Origin: Pyrinomonadaceae bacterium
Lineage (GTDB): Bacteria; Acidobacteriota; Blastocatellia; Pyrinomonadales; Pyrinomonadaceae
DNA length: 64,000 nucleotides
Assembly: GCA_014380365.1 (NCBI GenBank)
Contig: JACMJZ010000025.1
Location: 372,001-436,000 of the forward strand
Direction: 5' to 3'
Shown here: one piece after another, positions 9,945-49,146 of the stretch
Layout of the letters: the number at the start of each line of letters is the position of its first letter
How positions within the stretch are numbered: the first letter of the stretch is position 1
The notes under the pieces: generated by a model
The model's input: the letters and a program-made list of their open reading frames with translations, nothing else
Database searches by the model: none
What the model was told of the DNA's origin: nothing
Translations under genes and position numbers: made by a program

Positions 9945-12900
9945 ATGTCGAAATTTGTGAAGCTTGCTCTTGCTCTATCATTCATGCTCGTGATGAGCGC
10001 TCTGACCTTTGGCCAGTCGACTGTGTCGGGCGCCATCGGCGGCACCGTTTCTAACCCGAATAAAGAGGTGGTTCCTAATGCCAGCGTGACGGTGAAGAGC
10101 GCCGACACGAATAAGGAAGACACCGCCACCACCGATGACCAGGGGCGCTTTAAGATTTCCGGTCTGCAACCGGGGACTTATTCCATTACCATCGATGGCG
10201 CCGGCTTTAGCCCTTATACGCAGAACAACATTGTGGTCGAAATCGGTCGCGAGACTTCGATCAATGCGGCGCTTTCGATTGGGCCAGTTTCCGGACAGGT
10301 AGACGTGACCTCGGAAGCTCCCGTAATAAATACTTCGCAGCAGGATTTCTCCAGCAACATCAATCAGACCTCGATTAACGAGCTGCCCATCAACGGCCGC
10401 CGCTGGTCGAACTTTGCTTTGCTGACGCCGGGCGCAGTTCCCGATGGCAATTTTGGCTTGATCAGCTTCCGCGGAATTTCCGGATTGCTGAACAACAACA
10501 CCATTGACGGTGGCGACAACAATCAGGCCTTCTTCGCTGAGGAACGCGGCCGCACGCGCATCAGCTACTCAATCAGCCAGGCTGCTATTCGCGAATTTCA
10601 GGTGAACACTTCGAGCTACTCGGCCGAGTATGGCCGGTCCGCCGGTGGAGTAGTAAACGCGGTGACGAAGAGCGGAACCAACGAGTTTCACGGCGACCTC
10701 TTCTACTACCAGCGCAATAATAAATGGGGCGCGCGCAACCCGCTTGCAACTCGCACCGTCAACGTCGGTGGAGTATTCACTCCCGAAGGTTTCAAACCTG
10801 TCGACGTGCGTCATCAATTTGGCGGCGCAGTTGGCGGCCCAATTGTAAAAGACAAGGCCTTCTTCTTCTTTAGCTACGATGAGCAGAAACGCAATTTCCC
10901 CGGCCTCTCGATATTTTCGAGTCCCACTTTCTTGAACCTGAGCGCAGCGAACCGGACAGCGCTTTTGGCACGTGGCCTGACTACTGCGCAGATTGATGGC
11001 ACCCTCAATTTCCTGAATGGACTTTCGGGTGATCTTCCGCGTCGCGGCGACCAGCGACTAATTCTGCCGAAGCTTGATTGGAATCTGAACGACAAAAATA
11101 CGTTCACCGCAACTTACAACCGTCTACGGTGGGTCTCCCCTGCCGGTATCCAGACTCAGGCAGTTAACACGCGCGCCAAAGACAACTTTGGCGATGATGG
11201 CGTGAAGATCGATTCACTGAATCTGCGGTTGAACTCGACCATTTCCGATTCGCTGATCAACGAGGCGCGATTTCAGTGGGGCCGCGACAATGAGTTTCAG
11301 TTCAGCCAGCCGCCCCTTCCCGGCGAGCCAACCAATGCAATCGGCGGCCGATCTCCGCAGACGTTCATTCAGAATGGATTCACCTTCGGAATGCCCGAGT
11401 TTCTCGAGCGGACCGCGTTTCCCGATGAGCGTCGTGTGCAGATTGCCGACACGCTCACCCTCAGTCACGGTAGCCATAACGTGAAGTTTGGCGGTGACAT
11501 TAACTTCGTGACGGACATCATCAACAACCTGCGCTTTTCGGGTGGTGAGTTTAACTACACCGGCGCAAATGGACTCGCTGACTTTATCGTTGATTACACC
11601 AACTTCACTACGTCAGGCGCGATTCGCGCGCTGGCGGGTGGCACTAATGGCCAGTGTGTCAGCTCGACGAGGCGTGCCGGCCAGTGCTATGCCGGCAACT
11701 TCAATCAGGGACTGGGTGTGCTCGGCTTAACGATGAAGACTGTCGACTACAACTTCTTCTTGCAGGATGACTGGCGCGTCACGCCGCGACTGACACTGAA
11801 CCTTGGTGTGCGGTACGAGTACCAGCGAAATCCGGAGCAGATTAATTTCAACCCGGCTCTGCCGCAGACCGCCAACGTCGTGGACGATCGAAATAACCTC
11901 GGACCGCGGATTGGATTTGCTTTGGATCTCACCGGCGAAGGTAAAAGCAGCTTTCGCGGGGGCTGGGGTCTCTACTACGGTCGAGTGATAAACTCCACCG
12001 TGTACAACACCCTGGTAAATACCGGCGTAGGTATCGACCGTGGCCAACGACAGATAATCATGAGCGCCACGAACTTGCCGACGGGTTGCGCTGCGCCTGG
12101 AACCGCCTGTTTACCCATCTATCCGAATTTGCTCCCCGGTGGGGCCACACCGCCGCCCGCAGTCCAGTTCTTCGATTCAAATTTCCAGCTACCGCAAATT
12201 CATCAGTTTGACATGATTTTCGAGCAGGAGATCGCCCGGAATACTGTCGTCTCCGCTTCGTACCTGGGAAGCTTCGGCAATTCGCTACCCAACTTTGTCG
12301 ATACGAACCTTCCTCCGCCGACAACGACCGTAGCCGTGCCGGTTGTAGGTGGACCTGTAGATGGAGCCATCTATCGGACGCCGATATTCACTGGTGCGCG
12401 ACCGAATACTGCGTTCGCCCAGCTTACCGCAATCCGCAGCAACGTGTTTACCAAGTATCACGCGCTGGTGCTGCAGGCGAACCGCCGGCTAACTAACGGG
12501 CTCCAATTTCAGACGAGTTACACCCTGTCGCGGTCTTACGACAATGGTCAGAGTTCCGTGACCTTCTCGTCCAACAATCTCCCGTTCAATGCCTACGACC
12601 AGCAAGGCGAGAATTCGCTGTCAAACTTTGATCGCAGACAGAAGCTTGTCGCCAGCGTTGTTTACAACACTGATTTCTTCAAAGGCAGCGATAACAGTGC
12701 CGGGAACGCAATACTCGACGGTTGGACGATAGCGCCAATCTTCAACGCATTTTCCGGTGCCCGTTTCACCGGGTCGATCACCGGCAGCATCACTCCTACC
12801 GCCTACGGCTTTGCTTCAAATACAACTCCGGGCGGCGGCGTCAACGGTTCAGGTGGTTCGAATCGCTTCGCGTTACTTCCGCGAAACTACTTCAAACAGC

Positions 12901-19396: not shown

Positions 19397-19903
19397 CTAT
19401 TCGGACCTAACGTGGTCACCGCCAATTGCCTCAAGAAGTTCTTCAAGTTTGTCGGTTTCGTCGTCAGACTTTCCTTCTACGCCGATTAGGATGCCGCCGC
19501 CCTTCAGGCCGGCTTCGTAGACCTTAGCGCGGTATTCCGGAATGCCGGCCCCGATGAGCGCGCCGATAACGCCGCCTGTCGCTGCGCCAGCACCGGCACC
19601 GGCGAGCGCTGCGGCGATTGGTCCGGCGATCACCAGATTCAGACCCGGTAGCAGAATCGTACTGCCCACGGCAACGATCGCTGCCAGCACAGCACCCACA
19701 ACGCCACCCAGTGCGCCGCCTATGCCAGCCCCGTCAGCCGCATGACTTCTTGCCTGAAGCGCAAACTCTTTATTGTGTGTAGCGTCAGACATCAGCACGC
19801 TAATGTCGTCGCGCGTATATCCTCGCTTCATGATTGCATCCACTGCCGACTCAGCGGCCAGCCGGTTTTTGAATAGTCCCGTTACTAGTTTTGGCTTCGC
19901 CAT
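19397..19903 (-). CDS. General stress protein 17M-like, glycine-zipper membrane protein
   Basis: 168 residues from the ATG at 19903, which has AAGGAGGT nine bases upstream; the open frame extends much further but without a start signal. The N-terminus (KLVTGLFKNRLAAESAVDAI, then YTRDDISVLMSD) is the ferredoxin-like fold of general stress protein 17M/YflT. The middle is a Gly/Ala-rich hydrophobic block with GxxxG repeats (about 65-125) that probably inserts into a membrane. The C-terminus is acidic. Its neighbour on the opposite strand is another general-stress protein (CsbD). Function is unknown. Confidence 0.82.
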   Translation of the reverse strand: MAKPKLVTGLFKNRLAAESAVDAIMKRGYTRDDISVLMSDATHNKEFALQARSHAADGAGIGGALGGVVGAVLAAIVAVGSTILLPGLNLVIAGPIAAALAGAGAGAATGGVIGALIGAGIPEYRAKVYEAGLKGGGILIGVEGKSDDETDKLEELLEAIGGDHVRSE

Positions 19904-42135: not shown

Positions 42136-42201
42136 CCAGAGGTCAAGCTTTGCCTAATAAGTCTCGTTTGCCCAAGAAGTCGTGAGGCTGCCCAAGAAGT
42201 G
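42136..42201. repeat. Left end: terminal inverted repeat and three motif copies
   Basis: The 28-base end sequence (42136-42163) ends in the first motif copy TTGCCTAATAAGTC (42150-42163). TTGCCCAAGAAGTC (42168-42181) and CTGCCCAAGAAGTG (42188-42201) follow in the same orientation, spaced 18 and 20 bases start to start. The spacing and repetition resemble recombinase-binding arrays at transposon ends. Confidence 0.8.
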
Positions 42202-42252
42202 GATCAGGCTAGTTCACAAGGGGAGTGGGGTAAAGGTGTGGTGTTAGGTCAA

Positions 42253-42288
42253 TAAGACAAAAGCGGCGACGTGAATCACGTTGCCGCT
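42253..42288 (-). terminator. Intrinsic terminator, minus strand
   Basis: A 12-bp stem (42277-42288 with 42262-42273, one G-T pair) and three-base loop, followed on the minus strand by TTTTGTCTTATT. It would end a transcript running toward the left edge of the island. Confidence 0.75.
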
Positions 42289-42362
42289 CCCTAAGGTTAC
42301 CAACTTGGATGCAAAAGCGAGGGCGGCGGTCATTGTCCTCACCCCAGCAACCGCCACCCTCT
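42255..42362 (-). ncRNA. Candidate small RNA with exposed 19-nt loop
   Basis: Read on the minus strand, GGGTGGCGGT pairs over ten bases with ACCGCCGCCC around a 19-base loop (TGCTGGGGTGAGGACAATG), and an intrinsic terminator follows about 40 bases later. The loop plus two flanking bases on each side is the 23-base sequence repeated at 46689-46711. No promoter is obvious upstream. An open frame runs through here on the minus strand, but it crosses the terminator stem and has no start signal, so an RNA is favoured. Confidence 0.4.
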
Positions 42363-42484
42363 AAGGGAGCGCAGGCGTTTGGCAACGCTACCCTGCCGTT
42401 GCCATCGGGAGCCGCGCTCACCTATGTTAAGATCGAAACGAACTATGAATTATCTGCGAGGTAAAACTGGTTAATGCCGCCCGT

Positions 42485-42596
42485 CCTGATGCGAGGCATC
42501 AGGGTGACTCGAACGGCAACGCGCATTCTAAGGGCAATTGCCCACAGGCACAAGGGAGCAGCCTCCATCCCATCAGGAGGCATAGACTGATGGGAT
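42485..42596 (+). promoter_or_regulatory. Hairpin-rich leader and start-codon hairpin of the Xre gene
   Basis: Three perfect palindromes precede the gene: CCTGATGC/GCATCAGG (42485-42503), GGGCAATTGCCC (42532-42543), and ATCCCATCA/TGATGGGAT (42567-42575 with 42588-42596). In the last one the ATG at 42590 lies in the stem and AGGAGG (42575-42580) opens the 12-base loop. Folding would hide the start codon, a plausible translational control. Confidence 0.55.
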
Positions 42597-42838
42597 CGTC
42601 GCCGCGTCCGAAGCCCAAATACTTGGGCAAGAAGTTGCGCGTAATTCGTCTGGACAGGTTAGGTCTGTCTCAGACGGAGATGAGCAAGGCGTTGGGGTTG
42701 AAAGTTGATTACTCGGCAGTCTCGCAATACGAGCTGGGCACACGCGAACCACCTTTGCTTGTCCTGCTCAAATATGCGCGGTTGTCTGGCGTGTCGATGG
42801 AGACGTTGGTTGACGATAAGATGAGGCTGTCGGATTAA
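42590..42838 (+). CDS. Small Xre-family HTH regulator
   Basis: 82 residues with a helix-turn-helix of the Xre/Cro type: LGLSQTEMSKALGLKVDYSA followed by VSQYELGTREPPLLVLLKYA and the closing GVSMETLVDDK. It probably controls genes of the island. Ribosome-binding site AGGAGG nine bases upstream. The next gene begins one base after its stop, so they form a two-gene unit. Confidence 0.88.
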   Translation: MGSSPRPKPKYLGKKLRVIRLDRLGLSQTEMSKALGLKVDYSAVSQYELGTREPPLLVLLKYARLSGVSMETLVDDKMRLSD

Positions 42839-42839
42839 G

Positions 42840-43154
42840 ATGTGTGTTCACACAATCAGTGTGCCTTACAACGATCTCGATGACGGTATCCGAGACGCCG
42901 TTCGCGTCTTGGCTGAGGGTGGTATCGAAACCTTTGAGTCCTGTCAGGGTGGGGAAGGCCACGCATACCCTGAGCCTACGATCCGCTTCCACGGGGAACG
43001 CGAGGCGGGCTGGCGCGCCTTAGCAGTGGCACAGGCTGTCAGACTTCGAGTTTTGGAATTGCGACGGGTATGGCCGATATTAGATGGTGAGCCTACTGGC
43101 CCGTGGTGGGAACTAACTCTCCGCAAGCCCCCGGGCCAACAGGTTAATGGTTAG
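42840..43154 (+). CDS. Phage-type conserved hypothetical protein
   Basis: 104 residues. The blocks GGIETFESCQGGEGHAYPEP, TIRFHGEREAGWRAL and LRRVWPILDGEPTGPWWELT recur in short proteins of phages and islands that I have seen, but no function is known to me. Compact, no membrane segment. It starts directly after the Xre gene and overlaps the oppositely oriented 52-residue gene by four bases at its end. Confidence 0.75.
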   Translation: MCVHTISVPYNDLDDGIRDAVRVLAEGGIETFESCQGGEGHAYPEPTIRFHGEREAGWRALAVAQAVRLRVLELRRVWPILDGEPTGPWWELTLRKPPGQQVNG

Positions 43155-43309
43155 CCTAGTTTAGCGCACTCCGCACAAAGCGGCCTACCGCCTGTGCCTT
43201 CAACACGGTTTTCAGTCTCGATGTTGTTTCCGGTGTTGCAATCCGTGTCGTTGTGGTAGACACGAGGGTCATTCGGAAGCTTGGAATGCCAAGCACTTAC
43301 CTTAGACAT
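43151..43309 (-). CDS. 52-residue Cys/His protein, putative zinc-binding
   Basis: A short gene too small for usual length cut-offs. Translation from ATG 43309 gives MSKVSAWHSKLPNDPRVYHN, then DTDCNTGNNIETENR, then GTGGRPLCAECAKLG. His19, Cys24, Cys45 and Cys48 could bind one zinc ion. The YHND..C..G..I..ENR..GTGGRPLC..C pattern recurs in small proteins elsewhere, to my memory, without known function. An AAGGTAAGG ribosome-binding stretch precedes the ATG. Its stop overlaps the convergent gene by four bases. Confidence 0.75.
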   Translation of the reverse strand: MSKVSAWHSKLPNDPRVYHNDTDCNTGNNIETENRVEGTGGRPLCAECAKLG

Positions 43310-43359
43310 TTTTTTACCTTACCTTCTGGAAAACAGGTGTTTACGGTGAAGCGAGAGGC

Positions 43360-43448
43360 GTGTTATCTTGCCTTAGCCGTAAGGCAACACGTTGGCTGCC
43401 AATCCAATCTCGCCGGTTCTCCAAAATCAACGAGACAGGTTGGCAGCC
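43360..43448. repeat. Two consecutive hairpins
   Basis: GTGTT..TTGCCTTA/TAAGGCAA..AACAC (43360-43390, loop GCCG) and GGCTGCCAA/TTGGCAGCC (43394-43402 with 43440-43448) fill the gap between the 52-residue gene and the toxin gene; CTTTT follows the second hairpin on the plus strand. The second may end transcripts from either side. Confidence 0.6.
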
Positions 43449-43455
43449 GTCGCTT

Positions 43456-43872
43456 TTAGAATATCCAATCATCACTAACCTCGATCTTAATCAAGGGCTT
43501 TTCAATTCCCAGTTCAGTCAATAACTGATCAAAACTGCCATCGTCTATTGCGGTGTTAAGTTGCCTTCGCATTCCCGGTCGTCTACGCGAAATGTTTAGC
43601 ACGATCACCGCTGGCTCACTCGGATTGATGCAGTAAGAAATGGATACTGAACGGAGCGGAAGCTTGTAGATAACATTAAAGAGGCCGACCAAAGCCCACC
43701 TCGGATCACACGGACACTGTGAGAGTGTTGTGTCGAGGGCTTGATCGACCTCTCTTAAGGTCATCACCGCAGGGTGTTGATTTTGGCCAGCGGCGAGACA
43801 CGCTCGCGCTCTTTCGCGTATTTCTCGATACGATCTCTCCGCTGGTTGAGTCCACTCAAGGATATAAGCCAT
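43456..43872 (-). CDS. RelE/ParE-like toxin candidate
   Basis: 138 residues, longer than the usual 90-110. The middle stretch RWALVGLFNVIYKLPLRSVS and the following YCINPSEPAVIVLNISRRR fit the strand-rich core of the RelE/ParE fold, though identity is weak. It lies 27 bases downstream of a Phd-like gene in antitoxin-first order, which is the stronger argument. A C-terminal extension with SDDWIF is of unknown use. Confidence 0.55.
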   Translation of the reverse strand: MAYILEWTQPAERSYREIRERARACLAAGQNQHPAVMTLREVDQALDTTLSQCPCDPRWALVGLFNVIYKLPLRSVSISYCINPSEPAVIVLNISRRRPGMRRQLNTAIDDGSFDQLLTELGIEKPLIKIEVSDDWIF

Positions 43873-43899
43873 TGTACGAGGTTTAGCGACCCCGAATCG

Positions 43900-44244
43900 T
43901 TATTTGGGGCGCTTGTTACCCCCTTTCTTTGGTGTTCCACGAACTTCTGTGTCGGGTTTGGTGTTGCCGCTCTGTGAGCCACGCAGGGCCGCCACTAAAG
44001 CCACTCTGTCTTCTTCCGTGAAGATTGATTCTAGGGTAGCCAAGAGCGCGTTCCTTTCTTTCTGCATTTCCAAAAACTGGTCAATACTCAGAATTACCGC
44101 AAGGGGCCTGTCATCGTCCTGGATAACCCAAGTCTTATCCAAGCTCTGAAGTTTCCCCGCGTTTAGAGTGCGGAGCTTGCTGACTCCGACGTATTGGACA
44201 TTGGGGTCAATGACGGGGATTCCCTTTGTCTCGTTATTTAGCAT
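43900..44244 (-). CDS. Phd/YefM-like antitoxin candidate
   Basis: 114 residues. YVGVSKLRTLNAGKLQSLDK followed by TWVIQDDDRPLAVILSIDQF is the Phd/YefM pattern: a strand-helix DNA-binding N-domain and the conserved xPLAVxLS strand. The C-terminus is basic and disordered (KKGGNKRPK), where the toxin would bind. An AAAGGA ribosome-binding site precedes the ATG, and a good promoter lies about 75 bases upstream. Confidence 0.75.
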   Translation of the reverse strand: MLNNETKGIPVIDPNVQYVGVSKLRTLNAGKLQSLDKTWVIQDDDRPLAVILSIDQFLEMQKERNALLATLESIFTEEDRVALVAALRGSQSGNTKPDTEVRGTPKKGGNKRPK

Positions 44245-44319
44245 AGGCGTCCTTTTCCTTTCATGTGTTGGAGGGGTTGTCTGTCAGTCGAATCTCGTAA
44301 TTCCCCGTTTCGGTTGCCA

Positions 44320-44349
44320 AGAATACTCTTTCGACCTCTCTCTTGTCAA
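44320..44349 (-). promoter_or_regulatory. Sigma-70 type promoter of the TA pair
   Basis: On the minus strand TTGACA (44349-44344) and TATTCT (44325-44320) are spaced by 18 bases and point at the Phd-like gene. The bases around the -35 (TGTCAAGCGAAAT on the plus strand) recur at 46583-46595. Confidence 0.65.
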
Positions 44350-44362
44350 GCGAAATCTGTCA

Positions 44363-44410
44363 TTGACTTTCGATTATGCTGTCTATATACTGTCAGTATG
44401 TTGTACATAC
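44363..44410 (+). promoter_or_regulatory. Strong promoter with overlapping palindromic operator
   Basis: TTGACT (44363-44368) and TATACT (44386-44391) with a 17-base spacer form a near-consensus promoter reading toward the transposase. The perfect palindrome GTATGTTGTACATAC (44396-44410) covers the expected start of transcription and looks like a repressor site, perhaps for the Phd-like protein or the island's Xre regulator. Confidence 0.75.
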
Positions 44411-44451
44411 CTTGTCACGTGCTACACAGTAACAGAACGGCTAAAAATAAT

Positions 44452-44489
44452 AAAGCCCTGCGGCTGCGCTAACAGCTACAGGGCTTTTT
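44452..44489 (+). terminator. Intrinsic terminator in the transposase leader
   Basis: AAAGCCCTG (44452-44460) pairs with CAGGGCTTT (44479-44487), with an inner GCTG/CAGC stem, and is followed by further T. It lies between the strong promoter and the transposase ATG, so it could attenuate transposase expression. Confidence 0.8.
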
Positions 44490-44568
44490 GAAAATCAAAC
44501 GCGATTGCTCACGTCCGATCTCGCAAATCCATTGTGAGCAATCCCCGAACAAAAAGCAAGGAGTCACA

Positions 44569-45834
44569 ATGGACGCCAGAGAACAAAAAGCACTTGAGAT
44601 AGCGGCAACAACGAAACTGGTTCGCGGTGGAGATGTTTGGATGGTTCCATCTCAATCAGGACGCGGGAAGTACACGGTAAATCCCGACCCGGAATCGCCG
44701 CGATGCACTTGTCCCGACTTTGAGTGTAGGCAATTGCGTTGCAAGCACATCTTCGCGGTAGAGTACACCATCCGTCGGGAATACAAAGATGATGGTCAGA
44801 CTCAGACCGTAACCGAAACTGTCACTGTTAAGAAAACTTACCGCCAGGACTGGCCCGCTTACAACGCCGCACAAGTAAACGAAAAGGATCAGTTTCAAAA
44901 GCTACTACATGATCTGTGCAAAGGTATCGGTGAGCCTTCACAGAAAATGGGACGCCCGCGCTTACCGTTTGAGGATATGATTTTCAGCGCGTGTTTCAGA
45001 GTTTACTCGACCGTCTCAGGACGCCGATTCATGAGCGACCTTCGGGACGCCAAAGCTAAAGGTCATATCTCACAACTCCCCTGCTACAACTCACTTTTTA
45101 ATTACTTCGAGAATGAAGCGTTGACGCCTTATCTCGAAATGTTGATCGAAGAAAGCAGCTTGCCTCTTACTGCTATCGAGTCTGACTTCGCGGTTGATTC
45201 GTCCGGATTTTCAACGTGTCGCTTTGTTCAATGGGTGGACGCGAAATATACCAACCCCAAGTTGATGACGAAGCGCGAATGGGTCAAGGTTCATCTAATG
45301 TGCGGTGTCAAAACTAACGTGGTTACTGCTGTGAAGATCACTGATCGCTACTCAGGCGATAGCCCGCAGTTCAAGGAGCTAGTAGACGCTACCGCCAAGA
45401 ATTTTGTTATGCAGGAAGTGTCAGCGGATAAAGCCTACTTGTCGGCTCAGAATCTTCAAACCGTAGTAGACCATGCGGCCATGCCTTATATCCCGTTCAA
45501 GTCGAACAGCGCATCCGAGTGGGGCGGTCTGTCAGGAAAGCGAGGACAGGACACAAACGCGAAGTGGCGACGTAAGAGCAAGCTTTGGCGTCAGATGTAC
45601 CACTACTACGAATTTAACCAGCAATGGTTCTTCCAGCAGTATCACAAGCGAAGTAATGTTGAATCTACATTCAGCATGATCAAAGCGAAGTTTGGCCATA
45701 GCCTCAGAAGCAAAACCAAGACAGCGCAGATCAACGAAGCATTGTGCAAGGTCTTGGCCCACAACATTTGCTGCTTAATTCAGTCGATGTTTGAGTTGAA
45801 TGTAAAACCGGAATTTTGGAGTGAAACAGCATAA
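44569..45834 (+). CDS. SWIM zinc-finger DDE transposase
   Basis: 421 residues from ATG 44569 with AAGGAG upstream. The N-terminal SWIM finger shows CxCxnCxH: Cys46, Cys48, Cys58 and His60. A DDE catalytic domain of the IS4/DDE_Tnp_1 type follows: Asp210 in FAVDSSGF, Asp287 in VSADKAY and Glu365 in RSNVESTFSMIK. All three acidic residues are present, so it may be active. I find no convincing inverted repeats immediately flanking this gene, so it may either act on the island ends or be a degenerate IS. Confidence 0.88.
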   Translation: MDAREQKALEIAATTKLVRGGDVWMVPSQSGRGKYTVNPDPESPRCTCPDFECRQLRCKHIFAVEYTIRREYKDDGQTQTVTETVTVKKTYRQDWPAYNAAQVNEKDQFQKLLHDLCKGIGEPSQKMGRPRLPFEDMIFSACFRVYSTVSGRRFMSDLRDAKAKGHISQLPCYNSLFNYFENEALTPYLEMLIEESSLPLTAIESDFAVDSSGFSTCRFVQWVDAKYTNPKLMTKREWVKVHLMCGVKTNVVTAVKITDRYSGDSPQFKELVDATAKNFVMQEVSADKAYLSAQNLQTVVDHAAMPYIPFKSNSASEWGGLSGKRGQDTNAKWRRKSKLWRQMYHYYEFNQQWFFQQYHKRSNVESTFSMIKAKFGHSLRSKTKTAQINEALCKVLAHNICCLIQSMFELNVKPEFWSETA

Positions 45835-46205
45835 AACGACAATGATCTTGACTGAGAGAAGAAAAGGCCTACAATGAGCCCGAGAAAGTTTTCCACAACC
45901 AAGTTCCGCTATATTGTGGAGCCTGAGTTAGTAAGCACTATTTATTGAAACGTCTTGTGGTTTTGGAGGATTCTGAATGAAGTAGTTACTTGGGGGCTTG
46001 AGGTCCCAAAACGACGAAAGCGTCGGCTCCACCCGACGCAATCGCTCGAAACCTAAAAGATTATGTCCGTATCCTGTATATCGCCACCGAAAGGTGACGC
46101 TGGTTTCTTCTGCATTCTACCAGCCTCGCCTGAAGTGTCAAGCTCTAATTTTAGGAGGACTACTACTAATAGTAGAGGGGACGTGTGTACGTCCCCTCCC
46201 CTTGG
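45835..46205 (+). ncRNA. Structured, apparently noncoding segment with alternative hairpins
   Basis: No gene is evident. Perfect hairpins crowd this stretch: CGACG/CGTCG (46012-46025) and GCGTCGG/CCGACGC (46020-46039) overlap and exclude each other; then CACC-GAAA-GGTG (46085-46096), GCTGGT/ACCAGC (46099-46124), CTACTA/TAGTAG (46160-46175) and AGGGGACGT/ACGTCCCCT (46176-46197). The density, a GNRA tetraloop and the alternative pairing suggest a structured RNA just before two tRNA-like elements. It matches no RNA family I can name. Confidence 0.4.
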
Positions 46206-46278
46206 GGTAGGGATGGCAAACGGTGAGCCGCTGCGATCGGCAATCGTAGTTTAGCGGGTTCAACTCCCGTCCCTACCT
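46206..46278 (+). tRNA. tRNA-like element with a 9-nt anticodon loop
   Basis: A cloverleaf can be drawn: acceptor GGTAGGG/CCCTACC (46206-46212, 46271-46277), a three-pair D-stem GGC/GCC with GG in its loop, anticodon stem CTGCG/CGTAG, a four-base variable region, and a T-arm GCGGG/CCCGT with loop TTCAACT. Deviations: A instead of U at position 8, and the anticodon loop is nine bases (ATCGGCAAT) unless two extra pairs form. No CCA is encoded. If T at 46237 is U33, the anticodon is CGG (Pro). It may be a degenerate or recoding tRNA. Confidence 0.5.
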
Positions 46279-46287
46279 TTCAAATGC

Positions 46288-46361
46288 GGGGTTTTAGTTT
46301 GGTGGCTAAAGCACTCGGCCCTTGGGCTGAGCGTTACGGGCTTTTAACCCCGTAAACCCCA
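46288..46361 (+). tRNA. tRNA-like element with an 8-nt anticodon loop
   Basis: Nine bases after the first one: acceptor GGGGTTT/AAACCCC (46288-46294, 46354-46360), U8 present, D-stem GTTT/AAGC with loop GGTGGCTA, anticodon stem CTCGG/CTGAG, variable region of four bases, T-stem ACGGG/CCCGT. The anticodon loop is eight bases (CCCTTGGG) and would give UGG (Pro) with G37 if U33 is 46322. The T-loop is eight bases and lacks TTC, so function is doubtful. Confidence 0.45.
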
Positions 46362-46834
46362 CTTTTTGATGCCCAGCCCGCAAAGACAGGGCACCAAAAC
46401 TGATTAAACATGTAATAGCCGGGAAGTTCCACAGTATGTACCGAGTGACCTGTTTTATGCAAATAAGTGAAACATATATTTGCTGGTCCCTTACGCGAAA
46501 AAAGCCGCCCCGCGCGACGTGGCGCGAGCGACTTGCAGCCAAGCAGAGTAACCGAATCGAATAATCACACTCGGCGAACACCGTGTCAAGCGAAATGTTG
46601 AAGTATCGCTTTAATAGTTATTACATTTTCCGCAGACCTGTGGAAAACTCTCGGGGCTTAGTAGTTGTCCTGCCAAAAAAACTCCTGTGTTGCTGGGGTG
46701 AGGACAATGACGCCCTTATTTACTTCTTTATTGGCTTTTTTAAGGTTTTCCCCTATACTCCGCGTGCCTTATCCCAACACCTTTTCGTTCAGGCAAGATA
46801 CAGACTCTCGCGGGTCCCTCGTGTTTCTTAATCT
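46362..46834. other. Noncoding stretch before the HExxH gene, with second 23-nt copy
   Basis: No supported gene in 473 bases. The 23-base sequence beginning GTTGCTGGGGTGAGG lies at 46689-46711 on the plus strand and is identical to the minus-strand sequence at 42351-42329. Unlike that copy it has no flanking stem. A promoter-like TTGACA (minus strand, within 46583-46595) is also present. Confidence 0.6.
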
Positions 46835-47692
46835 ATGTCCGAAATGTTCAAAGAGTTCGAGCCGAGGTTTAAGAAATTCACGAGCTGTCTTTGGATGGGC
46901 CTGACGTGTCTCTCTGTTGGAATAGGAGTACTACAAACCGAGTGGTTTTTTACTCGATGGGACCGCCCATCACACGAGGAAGTCTTAAAAGTGATGGACG
47001 AAGATGAAGCTGAGGAAAGGAAAATTGCCGATCAGTACATTAAGGCTAGGGGTAAGTTGCCAACGACGGGAATTCTCATCAGTGAAAACTTTAGTGCAAC
47101 CTCGGAGGGCATGCTAGTTAAAGCCCTAAAAGATTTATTGGATGACGAGGCACTGCAAGCGGCGATTCGACAAGATTTTGGCCGGTCCTTCCATGACGTA
47201 AACGCTATTGTCTTTCCGGCTTGGGAAGCAATTCATGATAAAGCCGTTTTCGGGTTCACTGATGTTGGTCGAGATGCCGCCCTCATCGCTTCGCGACAGG
47301 TTTTCGCAGCCGGTTTCACTGTCCACGACCGACACAATCAGCCCCAGGCAACTATAGACGGAGTTCCGCGGATTGGCATTGATCGGGAGGCTTTATACGA
47401 TCAGGATACCGTGAAGCTTACTCTGTTTCATGAACTGTTTCACGCGATGAATGTACCAAAGCATGAACCTCCCTGGTACACCGTTATGCAAAACGATCTG
47501 GTGTATTGTGACGAGTATCGAGATTACGTAAAGAGATTCGGATTCAAGTACGACAGAGAGCGGAATATATGGATAGTGACTGCTATTCCGATGTTGTTCT
47601 TTTTGTACTTGCTGATTCGGCACCTCTGGTGGGTATGGCTGAGAAATTTATGGTTTACGCGGTTGCGGCGCCGGGTTGGCGCCGCAAGTTAG
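46835..47692 (+). CDS. Membrane protein with HExxH metallopeptidase motif
   Basis: 285 residues, two membrane segments (about 16-36 and 247-265) enclosing a soluble domain that holds His199-Glu200-x-x-His203 (LTLFHELFHAM). Glu227 in YCDEYRDY, 24 residues further on, is a candidate third zinc ligand. This is a gluzincin-like arrangement, but I recognise no named family. The C-terminus is basic (RLRRRVG). It ends three bases before a convergent membrane-protein gene. Function unknown; a membrane protease or toxin-like peptidase is possible. Confidence 0.72.
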   Translation: MSEMFKEFEPRFKKFTSCLWMGLTCLSVGIGVLQTEWFFTRWDRPSHEEVLKVMDEDEAEERKIADQYIKARGKLPTTGILISENFSATSEGMLVKALKDLLDDEALQAAIRQDFGRSFHDVNAIVFPAWEAIHDKAVFGFTDVGRDAALIASRQVFAAGFTVHDRHNQPQATIDGVPRIGIDREALYDQDTVKLTLFHELFHAMNVPKHEPPWYTVMQNDLVYCDEYRDYVKRFGFKYDRERNIWIVTAIPMLFFLYLLIRHLWWVWLRNLWFTRLRRRVGAAS

Positions 47693-47694
47693 AT

Positions 47695-48258
47695 TTAAGA
47701 ATGAGTCGAGGTTTTTAACCGATACTGATGTTGGTGCGATCTGGCACTTCCTAACGAAGAGATAGCAAATCCCAGCAAGCTGAAAATTGCCACCAGAGCT
47801 AAGGCGTCAAACCAACTGGCACCGATGAACGTATTCGACAACCAAGTGAGTCCGGCAAGACCCGTGTTCGTTCGTATCTGACTCGTAAATTTCCACCAGT
47901 GGTAAACGGCGTATGCAATCCCCGCGAAAAACAGAACTGCCGAGAAACCTTGATGCTTTTCTCGTAAAATCCAGAGGGCGGCGGTTGCCGTTACGAGCAA
48001 GATTGATATGACGAACTGAGGGCTTTCCGCAACGTTCCAATCGACGCTGACGATGCTTGATGTTCCAATTCGCGCCCAAATCAAATCCCACAAGAACCAG
48101 CCCGCATACACTGCCGAAGCGACTGTTGTGATTACTTTGAGGATTAGGCTGCCGTTAGTGCCGTTGCGGCTCGCTTTGAGTTGGTCCAAGCGTCTTTGGA
48201 TCACACCCGCGATCTCAACGTACCGACGACCATTTGCTGTGGTCTTGATCTTGGCCAT
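47695..48258 (-). CDS. Hypothetical four-helix membrane protein
   Basis: 187 residues. A short soluble N-terminus (AGVIQRRLDQLKASRNG) precedes four hydrophobic segments at about 43-62, 80-98, 103-120 and 146-166. No family recognised. Its gene converges with the HExxH membrane protein, the stops being two bases apart, and both are confined to the island. The ATG at 48258 has AGGTAATTT upstream, a weak ribosome-binding site. Confidence 0.65.
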   Translation of the reverse strand: MAKIKTTANGRRYVEIAGVIQRRLDQLKASRNGTNGSLILKVITTVASAVYAGWFLWDLIWARIGTSSIVSVDWNVAESPQFVISILLVTATAALWILREKHQGFSAVLFFAGIAYAVYHWWKFTSQIRTNTGLAGLTWLSNTFIGASWFDALALVAIFSLLGFAISSLGSARSHQHQYRLKTSTHS

Positions 48259-49000
48259 GGGGAAATTACCTCCGAAAAAAGAATTACGAGGACAACTGCC
48301 TCTCAGTTCGCTTAAAAAGCAAGCGGAGTGCCGTTAAGAGACAAAGCCTCGCTGTTGGGCCAAATACAGTGAAATGGCCCCAATTTGCCATAAAATGTTC
48401 GGTCGGGGAGTTATGGGTTAGTGCTTTCAGTACGTTATTGGATGCCCGACGATCTGAAAAACTTCACGACCGGAAAGTCCGGTCAGAAATCCCGTGGAAG
48501 ACCGGTCTGACTAACCAATTTCTGCCAATGTGAATTGTGAAGCTTGCGTAGGGACCAGCAAGGATAACCCCTACAAAAGCTACATGATTCACGGTGGAAA
48601 CACAACGGTAAAAAGTTACGAGCGTCCAGCAAAACTGCTAGTTTATAGTCCGGTCAACCGCGCCTGTCAATAGCCTTGTGATGAAAATCCTTAAGAAAAC
48701 CTTAAAAAGACACCATAACAGAACATTATGACGTGAATTACGGCGATTTGTGGCAAAAAGCCGCAACTTCTCCCGTGAAGTCCAAGTCCAGCCCGCCCCG
48801 GCACCGCCCTCCGGGCCGGCGCGACACCCTCTCTCAACGAAGTGCCTCAGATGAAATCCGGTAGATGTGAGATCGAAAACTTTGACGCGCTCACCTCCGC
48901 CGGAAATCCCGACAACATTGAGGGTCTGGACGGGGCCGCGCCACCATTTTTTGTCTGATGAAGTGACGGGCAGCTTGCCTGAGAAGACCAGAGAGCGCGC
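48259..49000. other. Noncoding right portion of the island with long hairpins
   Basis: I see no credible gene in these 742 bases. GACCGG/CCGGTC (48468-48484) forms a tight hairpin, and a second GACCGG copy (48499-48504) could pair with CCGGTC instead. A long broken stem runs from 48530 to 48592: GTGAAT/ATTCAC, AGCTT/AAGCT and GTAGGG/CCCTAC. A degenerate copy of the end motif (TTGCCTGAGAAGAC) lies at 48975-48988. Confidence 0.55.
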
Positions 49001-49146
49001 CTGCCCAAAAAGTCCGGCTGGAAAATCAGTCTGCCCAAAAAGTCAGCTCGGAAACCGACTTATTAGGCAAAGCCTGACCTCTGGGCTTTGCCTAATAAGT
49101 CGATTTCGGAAGCGACTTTTGGGCAGACTGATTACTTTTTGGGCAG
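49001..49146. repeat. Right end: six motif copies in a near-perfect long palindrome
   Basis: CTGCCCAAAAAGTC at 49001 and 49031 (plus), TTGCCTAATAAGTC at 49057-49070 (minus) and 49088-49101 (plus), CTGCCCAAAAGTC at 49114-49126 (minus) and CTGCCCAAAAAGTA at 49133-49146 (minus). Bases 49027-49074 and 49083-49130 are imperfect reverse complements, so about 48 bp can pair around TGACCTCT. The outermost copy encodes the last residues of the gene ending at 49132. Confidence 0.85.

What the first reader, a model, noticed from the sequence alone, without database searches (positions are those of the whole stretch)
46206..46361. Two tandem tRNA-like cloverleafs with enlarged anticodon loops
Both fold with 7-bp acceptors and all arms, but have nine- and eight-base anticodon loops; both could present proline anticodons (CGG, UGG). 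Eight-base loops are known from frameshift-suppressor tRNAs. They may be decaying tRNAs, an integration target mimic, or recoding tRNAs serving the island.
Basis: partly seen in the sequence, partly recalled or inferred. Interest (0 to 1): 0.62.

Follow-up and report, generated by a model that had tools for sequence, protein, structure and literature searches.

The report
Transposon-linked pair of irregular tRNA genes
Two odd tRNA-like RNA genes sit side by side in a genomic island of a soil acidobacterium; the first is kept in cloverleaf shape by compensating mutations, and genes of this kind turn up again and again just upstream of one unusual family of transposases, so they look like parts of a mobile element rather than dying tRNAs.

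Summary
Two tandem cloverleafs at exactly 46206-46278 and 46288-46361 are real: both pass Rfam's tRNA gathering score (32.9 and 30.5 bits). They are not proline tRNAs: the genome already has Pro-UGG, -CGG and -GGG genes. RNA 1 has close relatives in only one other genome found; its three copies align without gaps, 96.8% of cells pair, and 10 of 21 pairs change on both sides, so it is not simply decaying. Its loop reads as nine bases or as seven on a six-pair stem. RNA 2 has no clear relative; its odd T-loop may mean decay.

Both relatives of RNA 1 lie just upstream of a SWIM zinc-finger DDE transposase, the family encoded 372 nt upstream of this pair. Among 79 loci of that family, 18 of 21 tRNA-model hits lie on the transposase strand, ending 99-438 nt upstream (p about 2e-23). 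Viral contigs repeat this (five of six hits). A control transposase family gave one distant hit in 30 loci. Acidobacterial allo-tRNAs and irregular tRNA polycistrons were known and loosely tied to transposons; I found no report of this systematic link. The window is atypical: its pair lies downstream. Function is inferred.

The parts
46206..46278 (+). tRNA-like RNA 1 (73 nt, no CCA, U73, A8 instead of U8; 6-bp anticodon stem with 7-nt loop UCGGCAA, or 5-bp stem with 9-nt loop AUCGGCAAU)
   Evidence: RF00005 32.9 bits; ARAGORN; homologues L160:2922-2994 (69.2 bits) and L161:8245-8317 (48.4 bits); covariation in 10/21 pairs
46288..46361 (+). tRNA-like RNA 2 (74 nt, no CCA, A73, 8-nt anticodon loop CCCUUGGG, non-canonical 8-nt T-loop CUUUUAAC), followed by a T-run
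   Evidence: RF00005 30.5 bits; model R2 finds only ordinary tRNAs elsewhere and one weak transposon-linked hit, L201, 31.7 bits
46175..46198 (+). 10-bp hairpin GAGGGGACGTGTGTACGTCCCCTC ending 7 nt before tRNA-like 1; a strong hairpin 5' of the tRNA-like is common in related cassettes
   Evidence: 16 of 22 cassettes have a stem of 9 or more pairs versus 31% upstream of this genome's other tRNAs (p=0.002); coordinates
44569..45834 (+). SWIM zinc-finger + DDE transposase, apparently intact; a fraction of its relatives have tRNA-like genes just upstream
   Evidence: Pfam SWIM and DDE_Tnp_1; alignment A3; below every NCBIfam IS cut-off; start ATG
44452..44543 (+). structured leader of the transposase gene: stem-loop 1 (44452-44487) and stem-loop 2 (44501-44543)
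   Evidence: inverted repeat; a similar two-hairpin leader precedes many relatives; coordinates
43900..44244 (-). Phd/YefM-like antitoxin candidate, divergent from the transposase
   Evidence: weak Pfam match E=0.05; position
43456..43872 (-). partner toxin candidate (RelE/ParE-like by eye only)
   Evidence: position next to the antitoxin candidate; no Pfam or NCBIfam match
42200..49130 (.). strain-specific low-GC island between a KAS III-like gene and a strictosidine-synthase-like gene; borders approximate
   Evidence: the two flanking genes are only a few hundred bases apart in most relatives that hold both on one contig; composition

Best explanation
The pair is a tandem of irregular, allo-tRNA-like tRNA genes that belong to the mobile-element gene pool of soil Acidobacteriota, specifically to cassettes that ride with a SWIM zinc-finger DDE transposase family. 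Shown: the two cloverleafs; selection on the structure of the first; its homology to RNAs located just upstream of such transposases; the strong positional link of tRNA-like genes to this transposase family. Inferred: the two are transcribed together, cut out by RNase P and RNase Z, receive CCA from the nucleotidyltransferase, and act as element-borne accessory tRNAs. Because acceptor and T stems are kept at 98-99% pairing while the anticodon stem is the loosest helix, they more likely engage tRNA-handling enzymes (processing, charging, tRNA-cutting toxins or defences) than read ordinary codons. A decoy or replacement tRNA that helps the element against tRNA-targeting toxins is in my view the likeliest role (about 0.3), ahead of missense decoding (0.2) and a direct role in transposition or transposase control (0.2).
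For: Rfam and ARAGORN detection. Close homologues of RNA 1 only in G070, both 100-150 nt upstream of a SWIM-DDE transposase. Covariation: 96.8% paired, 10/21 pairs changed on both sides, slid controls 40-58%, 0/500 shuffles. Of 21 tRNA-model hits in 79 transposase loci, 18 lie on the same strand ending 99-438 nt upstream; ARAGORN 16 of 17. Replication in viral contigs, 5 of 6 hits, two of them the same element. Control IS1595 transposases: 1 convincing hit in 30 loci, more than 1 kb from the transposase domain. Tandem arrangement recurs in L211 and L177. Pairing by helix: acceptor 98.8%, T 98.3%, D 90.2%, anticodon 82.2%. Precedent: allo-tRNAs and irregular tRNA polycistrons in Acidobacteria, suggested to be linked to transposons or toxin-antitoxin systems (PMC7609411).
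Against: In the window the pair lies 372 nt downstream, not upstream, of the transposase, and no second transposase remnant follows it. Most loci of the transposase family (61 of 79) have no detected tRNA-like RNA, so it is not essential. RNA 2 has no clear homologue and an abnormal T-loop. Only three sequences support the covariation of RNA 1, two of them from one genome. No transcript, processing or charging data exist. The functional part is inference.
Confidence: 0.6

Rival explanations
1. Decaying relics of a tRNA array: two former tRNAs from a phage- or plasmid-type array that lost function and drift.
For: Low scores (33 and 30 bits against mostly 50-75 for ordinary tRNAs), no CCA, C33 in RNA 1 under one reading, abnormal T-loop in RNA 2; the same genome carries a 28-tRNA array elsewhere.
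Against: RNA 1 shows compensatory changes in every helix but the invariant D stem; RNA 2 still pairs along all four stems; array tRNAs of this genome are regular with CCA and do not resemble the pair.
Confidence: 0.2
2. Insertion preference: the SWIM-DDE element inserts at a rough fixed distance downstream of tRNA genes, so the tRNA-likes are target sites and not parts of the element.
For: Many different anticodons; some upstream tRNAs score like ordinary ones (up to 76 bits) and a few encode CCA.
Against: Many are irregular and most lack CCA; distance varies with what lies between; hairpin plus tRNA-like is shared between different genomes and repeated within one locus, L235; a solitary related cassette exists without this transposase (own contig 9).
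Confidence: 0.12
3. Recoding or frameshift-suppressor tRNAs that serve genes of the island.
For: 8-9 nt anticodon loops are possible; the Cys-like relative L316 has an 8-nt loop CTCGCAAA.
Against: No interrupted or frameshifted gene that needs them was noticed in the island; the alignment also allows a normal 7-nt loop on a longer stem.
Confidence: 0.08

Closest known systems
Allo-tRNAs (8/4 and 9/3 tRNAs of Acidobacteria, Clostridia and Proteobacteria; Mukai et al. 2017, as reviewed in PMC7609411)
   Same: Acidobacterial, irregular, possibly lengthened anticodon stem, 8/4 acceptor/T folding drawn for RNA 1, suggested link to transposons or toxin-antitoxin genes
   Different: RNA 1 and 2 have short variable loops and so lack the serine-type long arm; the 8/4 fold is not kept in the L161 relative
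Irregular tRNA polycistrons of forest and peat soil metatranscriptomes (same review)
   Same: Tandem irregular tRNA-like sequences
   Different: The review assigns them to no particular element; here a transposase family is identified
tRNA array units of phages, plasmids and mycobacteria (PMC12803027) and anti-defence phage tRNAs (PMC10264068)
   Same: Mobile-element tRNAs with changed anticodon domains, proposed anti-defence role
   Different: Those are large, near-complete sets; here one or two irregular tRNAs beside a transposase

Membership tests
tRNA (Rfam RF00005) | score above gathering threshold | tested here: met
   32.9 and 30.5 bits, threshold 29
tRNA (Rfam RF00005) | 7-nt anticodon loop with U33 and a readable anticodon | tested here: inconclusive
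   RNA 1: 9 nt, or 7 nt with C33; RNA 2: 8 nt
Proline tRNA | NGG anticodon in register and Pro-type acceptor (C1-G72, A73 in this genome's own Pro tRNAs) | tested here: not met
   G1-C72 in both and U73 in RNA 1; homologues show GGC/CGC or GCA registers
Allo-tRNA | 8/4 or 9/3 acceptor/T branch | tested here: inconclusive
   8/4 possible for RNA 1 but A8-G65 in L161 breaks it; RNA 2 is 7/5
Allo-tRNA | long variable arm with serine identity | tested here: not met
   about 4-nt variable loops in both
tRNA array unit | many tRNAs covering most amino acids | tested here: not met
   only two in 45900-46700
Known IS families (IS5, IS1182, IS4, ISNCY) for the linked transposase | NCBIfam curated score | tested here: not met
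   best is IS5 at 107.5 bits, cut-off 140
Functional charged tRNA | transcription, processing, aminoacylation | not testable with these tools
   no RNA data

The most novel reading that the evidence does not exclude
A widespread transposon family not described in what I could search (SWIM zinc-finger DDE, found in several bacterial phyla and in archaea) carries tRNA-like RNAs at its 5' side as working components, either as RNA partners of the element or as decoys against tRNA-cutting toxins, with the window pair as one rearranged member.
Probability: 0.35. Interest if true: 0.85.

Novelty: new variant of a known kind. Interest (0 to 1): 0.62.

Why it matters
Irregular tRNAs of soil Acidobacteria have had no clear genetic home. 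A repeatable position just upstream of one transposase family gives them one, predicts where to find more, and makes their role testable. If they are functional parts, this is a new meeting of tRNA biology with transposition or with toxin-antitoxin conflict.

Tried and rejected
Direct DNA search of the pair in phages, plasmids and 58 relatives: nothing beyond short chance matches. Exact motif scan of viral contigs: nothing. RNA 1 model over 396 genomes of the phylum at E<=1e-8: own genome only (G070 was found in the class search). Transposase in plasmid and phage records: none. Second decayed transposase after the pair: none. The downstream 285-aa gene as a marker of the island: unique in 119 family genomes, so no help. 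Further tRNA-likes next to the pair: none. Literature for transposase-linked tRNA genes: no relevant paper in the held library; the original Mukai 2017 paper is not held, so only a review was read. ARAGORN at lowered thresholds: mostly noise. The tRNA-His call at 19641 is probably false, as it did not reach Rfam's gathering score.

Full report
Observation. The window lies in a 4.98 Mb genome in 34 contigs (contig 34, 372001-436000). Relatives carry the Acido-Lenti-1 RNA, and the closest transposase homologues in the named collection come from Blastocatellia and other Acidobacteria. Both cloverleafs are at the stated place on the + strand. On a short stretch Rfam's tRNA model gives 32.9 and 30.5 bits, above its gathering score; the whole-window and whole-genome scans with faster filters missed them. 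ARAGORN reports only the first, as tRNA-Ala(GGC) with a six-pair anticodon stem and an 8/4 acceptor/T branch. The genome has a broad set of ordinary tRNAs, including Pro-UGG, Pro-CGG and Pro-GGG, and 70 of 74 distinct ARAGORN calls encode CCA; the pair does not.

Surroundings. The pair lies in a low-GC island of about 7 kb (roughly 42.2-49.1 kb). In most relatives that hold both flanking genes on one contig, these genes (KAS III-like and strictosidine-synthase-like) are only a few hundred bases apart. The island holds an XRE regulator, a weakly supported Phd-like antitoxin with a possible toxin, a SWIM zinc-finger DDE transposase preceded by two hairpins, then the pair, then a 285-aa protein unique among 119 family genomes.

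Relatives. A covariance model of RNA 1 finds two relatives in one genome of another genus of the family: 69.2 and 48.4 bits, against 46.5 for the best ordinary tRNA, which is of Cys type. The three align without gaps. Of 63 cells 96.8% pair and 10 of 21 pairs change on both sides; sliding the partner drops pairing to 40-58% and no shuffle reaches the observed values. Five of six anticodon-stem pairs show changes on both sides, so that stem is under selection. The loop region can be read as GCA with two extra bases after position 33 (Cys-like, U73) or as GGC/CGC/CGC on a six-pair stem. A Cys-like tRNA in a viral contig, L316, has an 8-nt loop with one extra base, which favours the enlarged-loop reading. 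Neither reading gives proline. RNA 2 has no clear relative.

Link to a transposase. Both relatives of RNA 1 stand 100-150 nt upstream of a SWIM-DDE transposase on the same strand. I therefore collected that transposase: 30 loci from the class and 79 loci from named genomes in Acidobacteriota, Chloroflexota, Actinomycetota, Eremiobacterota, Planctomycetota, others and archaea. Default ARAGORN finds 17 tRNA genes in the 79 loci; 16 are on the transposase strand and end 97-436 nt upstream. The generic tRNA model R3 finds 18 of 21 there (binomial p about 2e-23 under uniform placement). R3 was built from 18 tRNAs of this genome plus six sequences from these loci, so it is partly trained on them; ARAGORN is not. 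In viral contigs five of six hits are upstream on the same strand, the sixth being weak, and two of the five are copies of one element. Thirty loci of a control transposase family give one convincing hit, more than 1 kb from the transposase domain; it stands beside a HicA/HicB-like gene pair (named by eye). The tRNA-likes differ in anticodon, are sometimes tandem, and often follow a strong hairpin. Acceptor and T stems pair at 98-99%, the anticodon stem at 82% (that alignment is fitted to the structure, so the contrast between helices matters more than the absolute values).

What it most likely is. The pair is a rearranged, downstream-lying example of transposon-linked irregular tRNA genes. 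Processing and function are inferred. I favour an accessory or decoy tRNA against tRNA-cutting toxins, in line with what is proposed for phage tRNAs (PMC10264068), because structure is best kept where tRNA enzymes bind and the neighbourhood holds toxin-antitoxin-like genes. Missense decoding or a part in transposition remain open.

Known or new. Allo-tRNAs and irregular tRNA polycistrons in Acidobacteria, and a suggestion that some go with transposons or toxin-antitoxin systems, are published (PMC7609411). I found no paper on a systematic link to this transposase family, and the transposase passes no curated IS family cut-off. I file it as a new variant of a known kind.

Limits. The window's own geometry is the exception; three sequences carry the covariation, two of them from one genome; 61 of 79 loci lack a detected tRNA-like gene; several loci of the class set and the named set are the same genomes, so only the named set was used for the statistic; no expression data exist.

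Noticed in passing
L061:5556-12316 (G000 contig 5, about 275555-282312): A 28-tRNA array with CCA-bearing, regular tRNAs for most amino acids, of the kind known as a tRNA array unit.
   Followed up: partly
L062 around 10492-10564 (G000 contig 5, 310491-310563): A tRNA-Lys(UUU)-like fragment at 33 bits, about 28 kb from the tRNA array: possibly an attachment-site remnant.
   Followed up: no
L271:6251-6334 (G000 contig 9, 130250-130333): A solitary class-II irregular tRNA-like gene similar to those before SWIM-DDE transposases in L196 and L269, next to an XRE regulator and an IS1595 transposase.
   Followed up: partly
L308:3632-3717: A similar irregular tRNA-like gene stands about 70 nt upstream of a HicA/HicB-like gene pair on the same strand (genes named by eye).
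   Followed up: partly
window 44452-44543 and leaders of many loci among L193-L269: A two-hairpin structured leader before the SWIM-DDE transposase, often with a loop like GCGCTAAC; no Rfam family matched.
   Followed up: partly
window 42328-42347 (-) and 46693-46712 (+); L271:6840-6862: A repeated stem-loop with conserved loop TGCTGGGGTGAGGACAATGAC, in two of three places near XRE regulator genes; chance expectation 0.01 in the window.
   Followed up: partly
L197, L211, L232, L242 and others, upstream of the transposase: A divergent small zinc-ribbon gene (..CPLCKSPYWNKPR..) with palindromic operator-like promoter sequences between it and the transposase.
   Followed up: no
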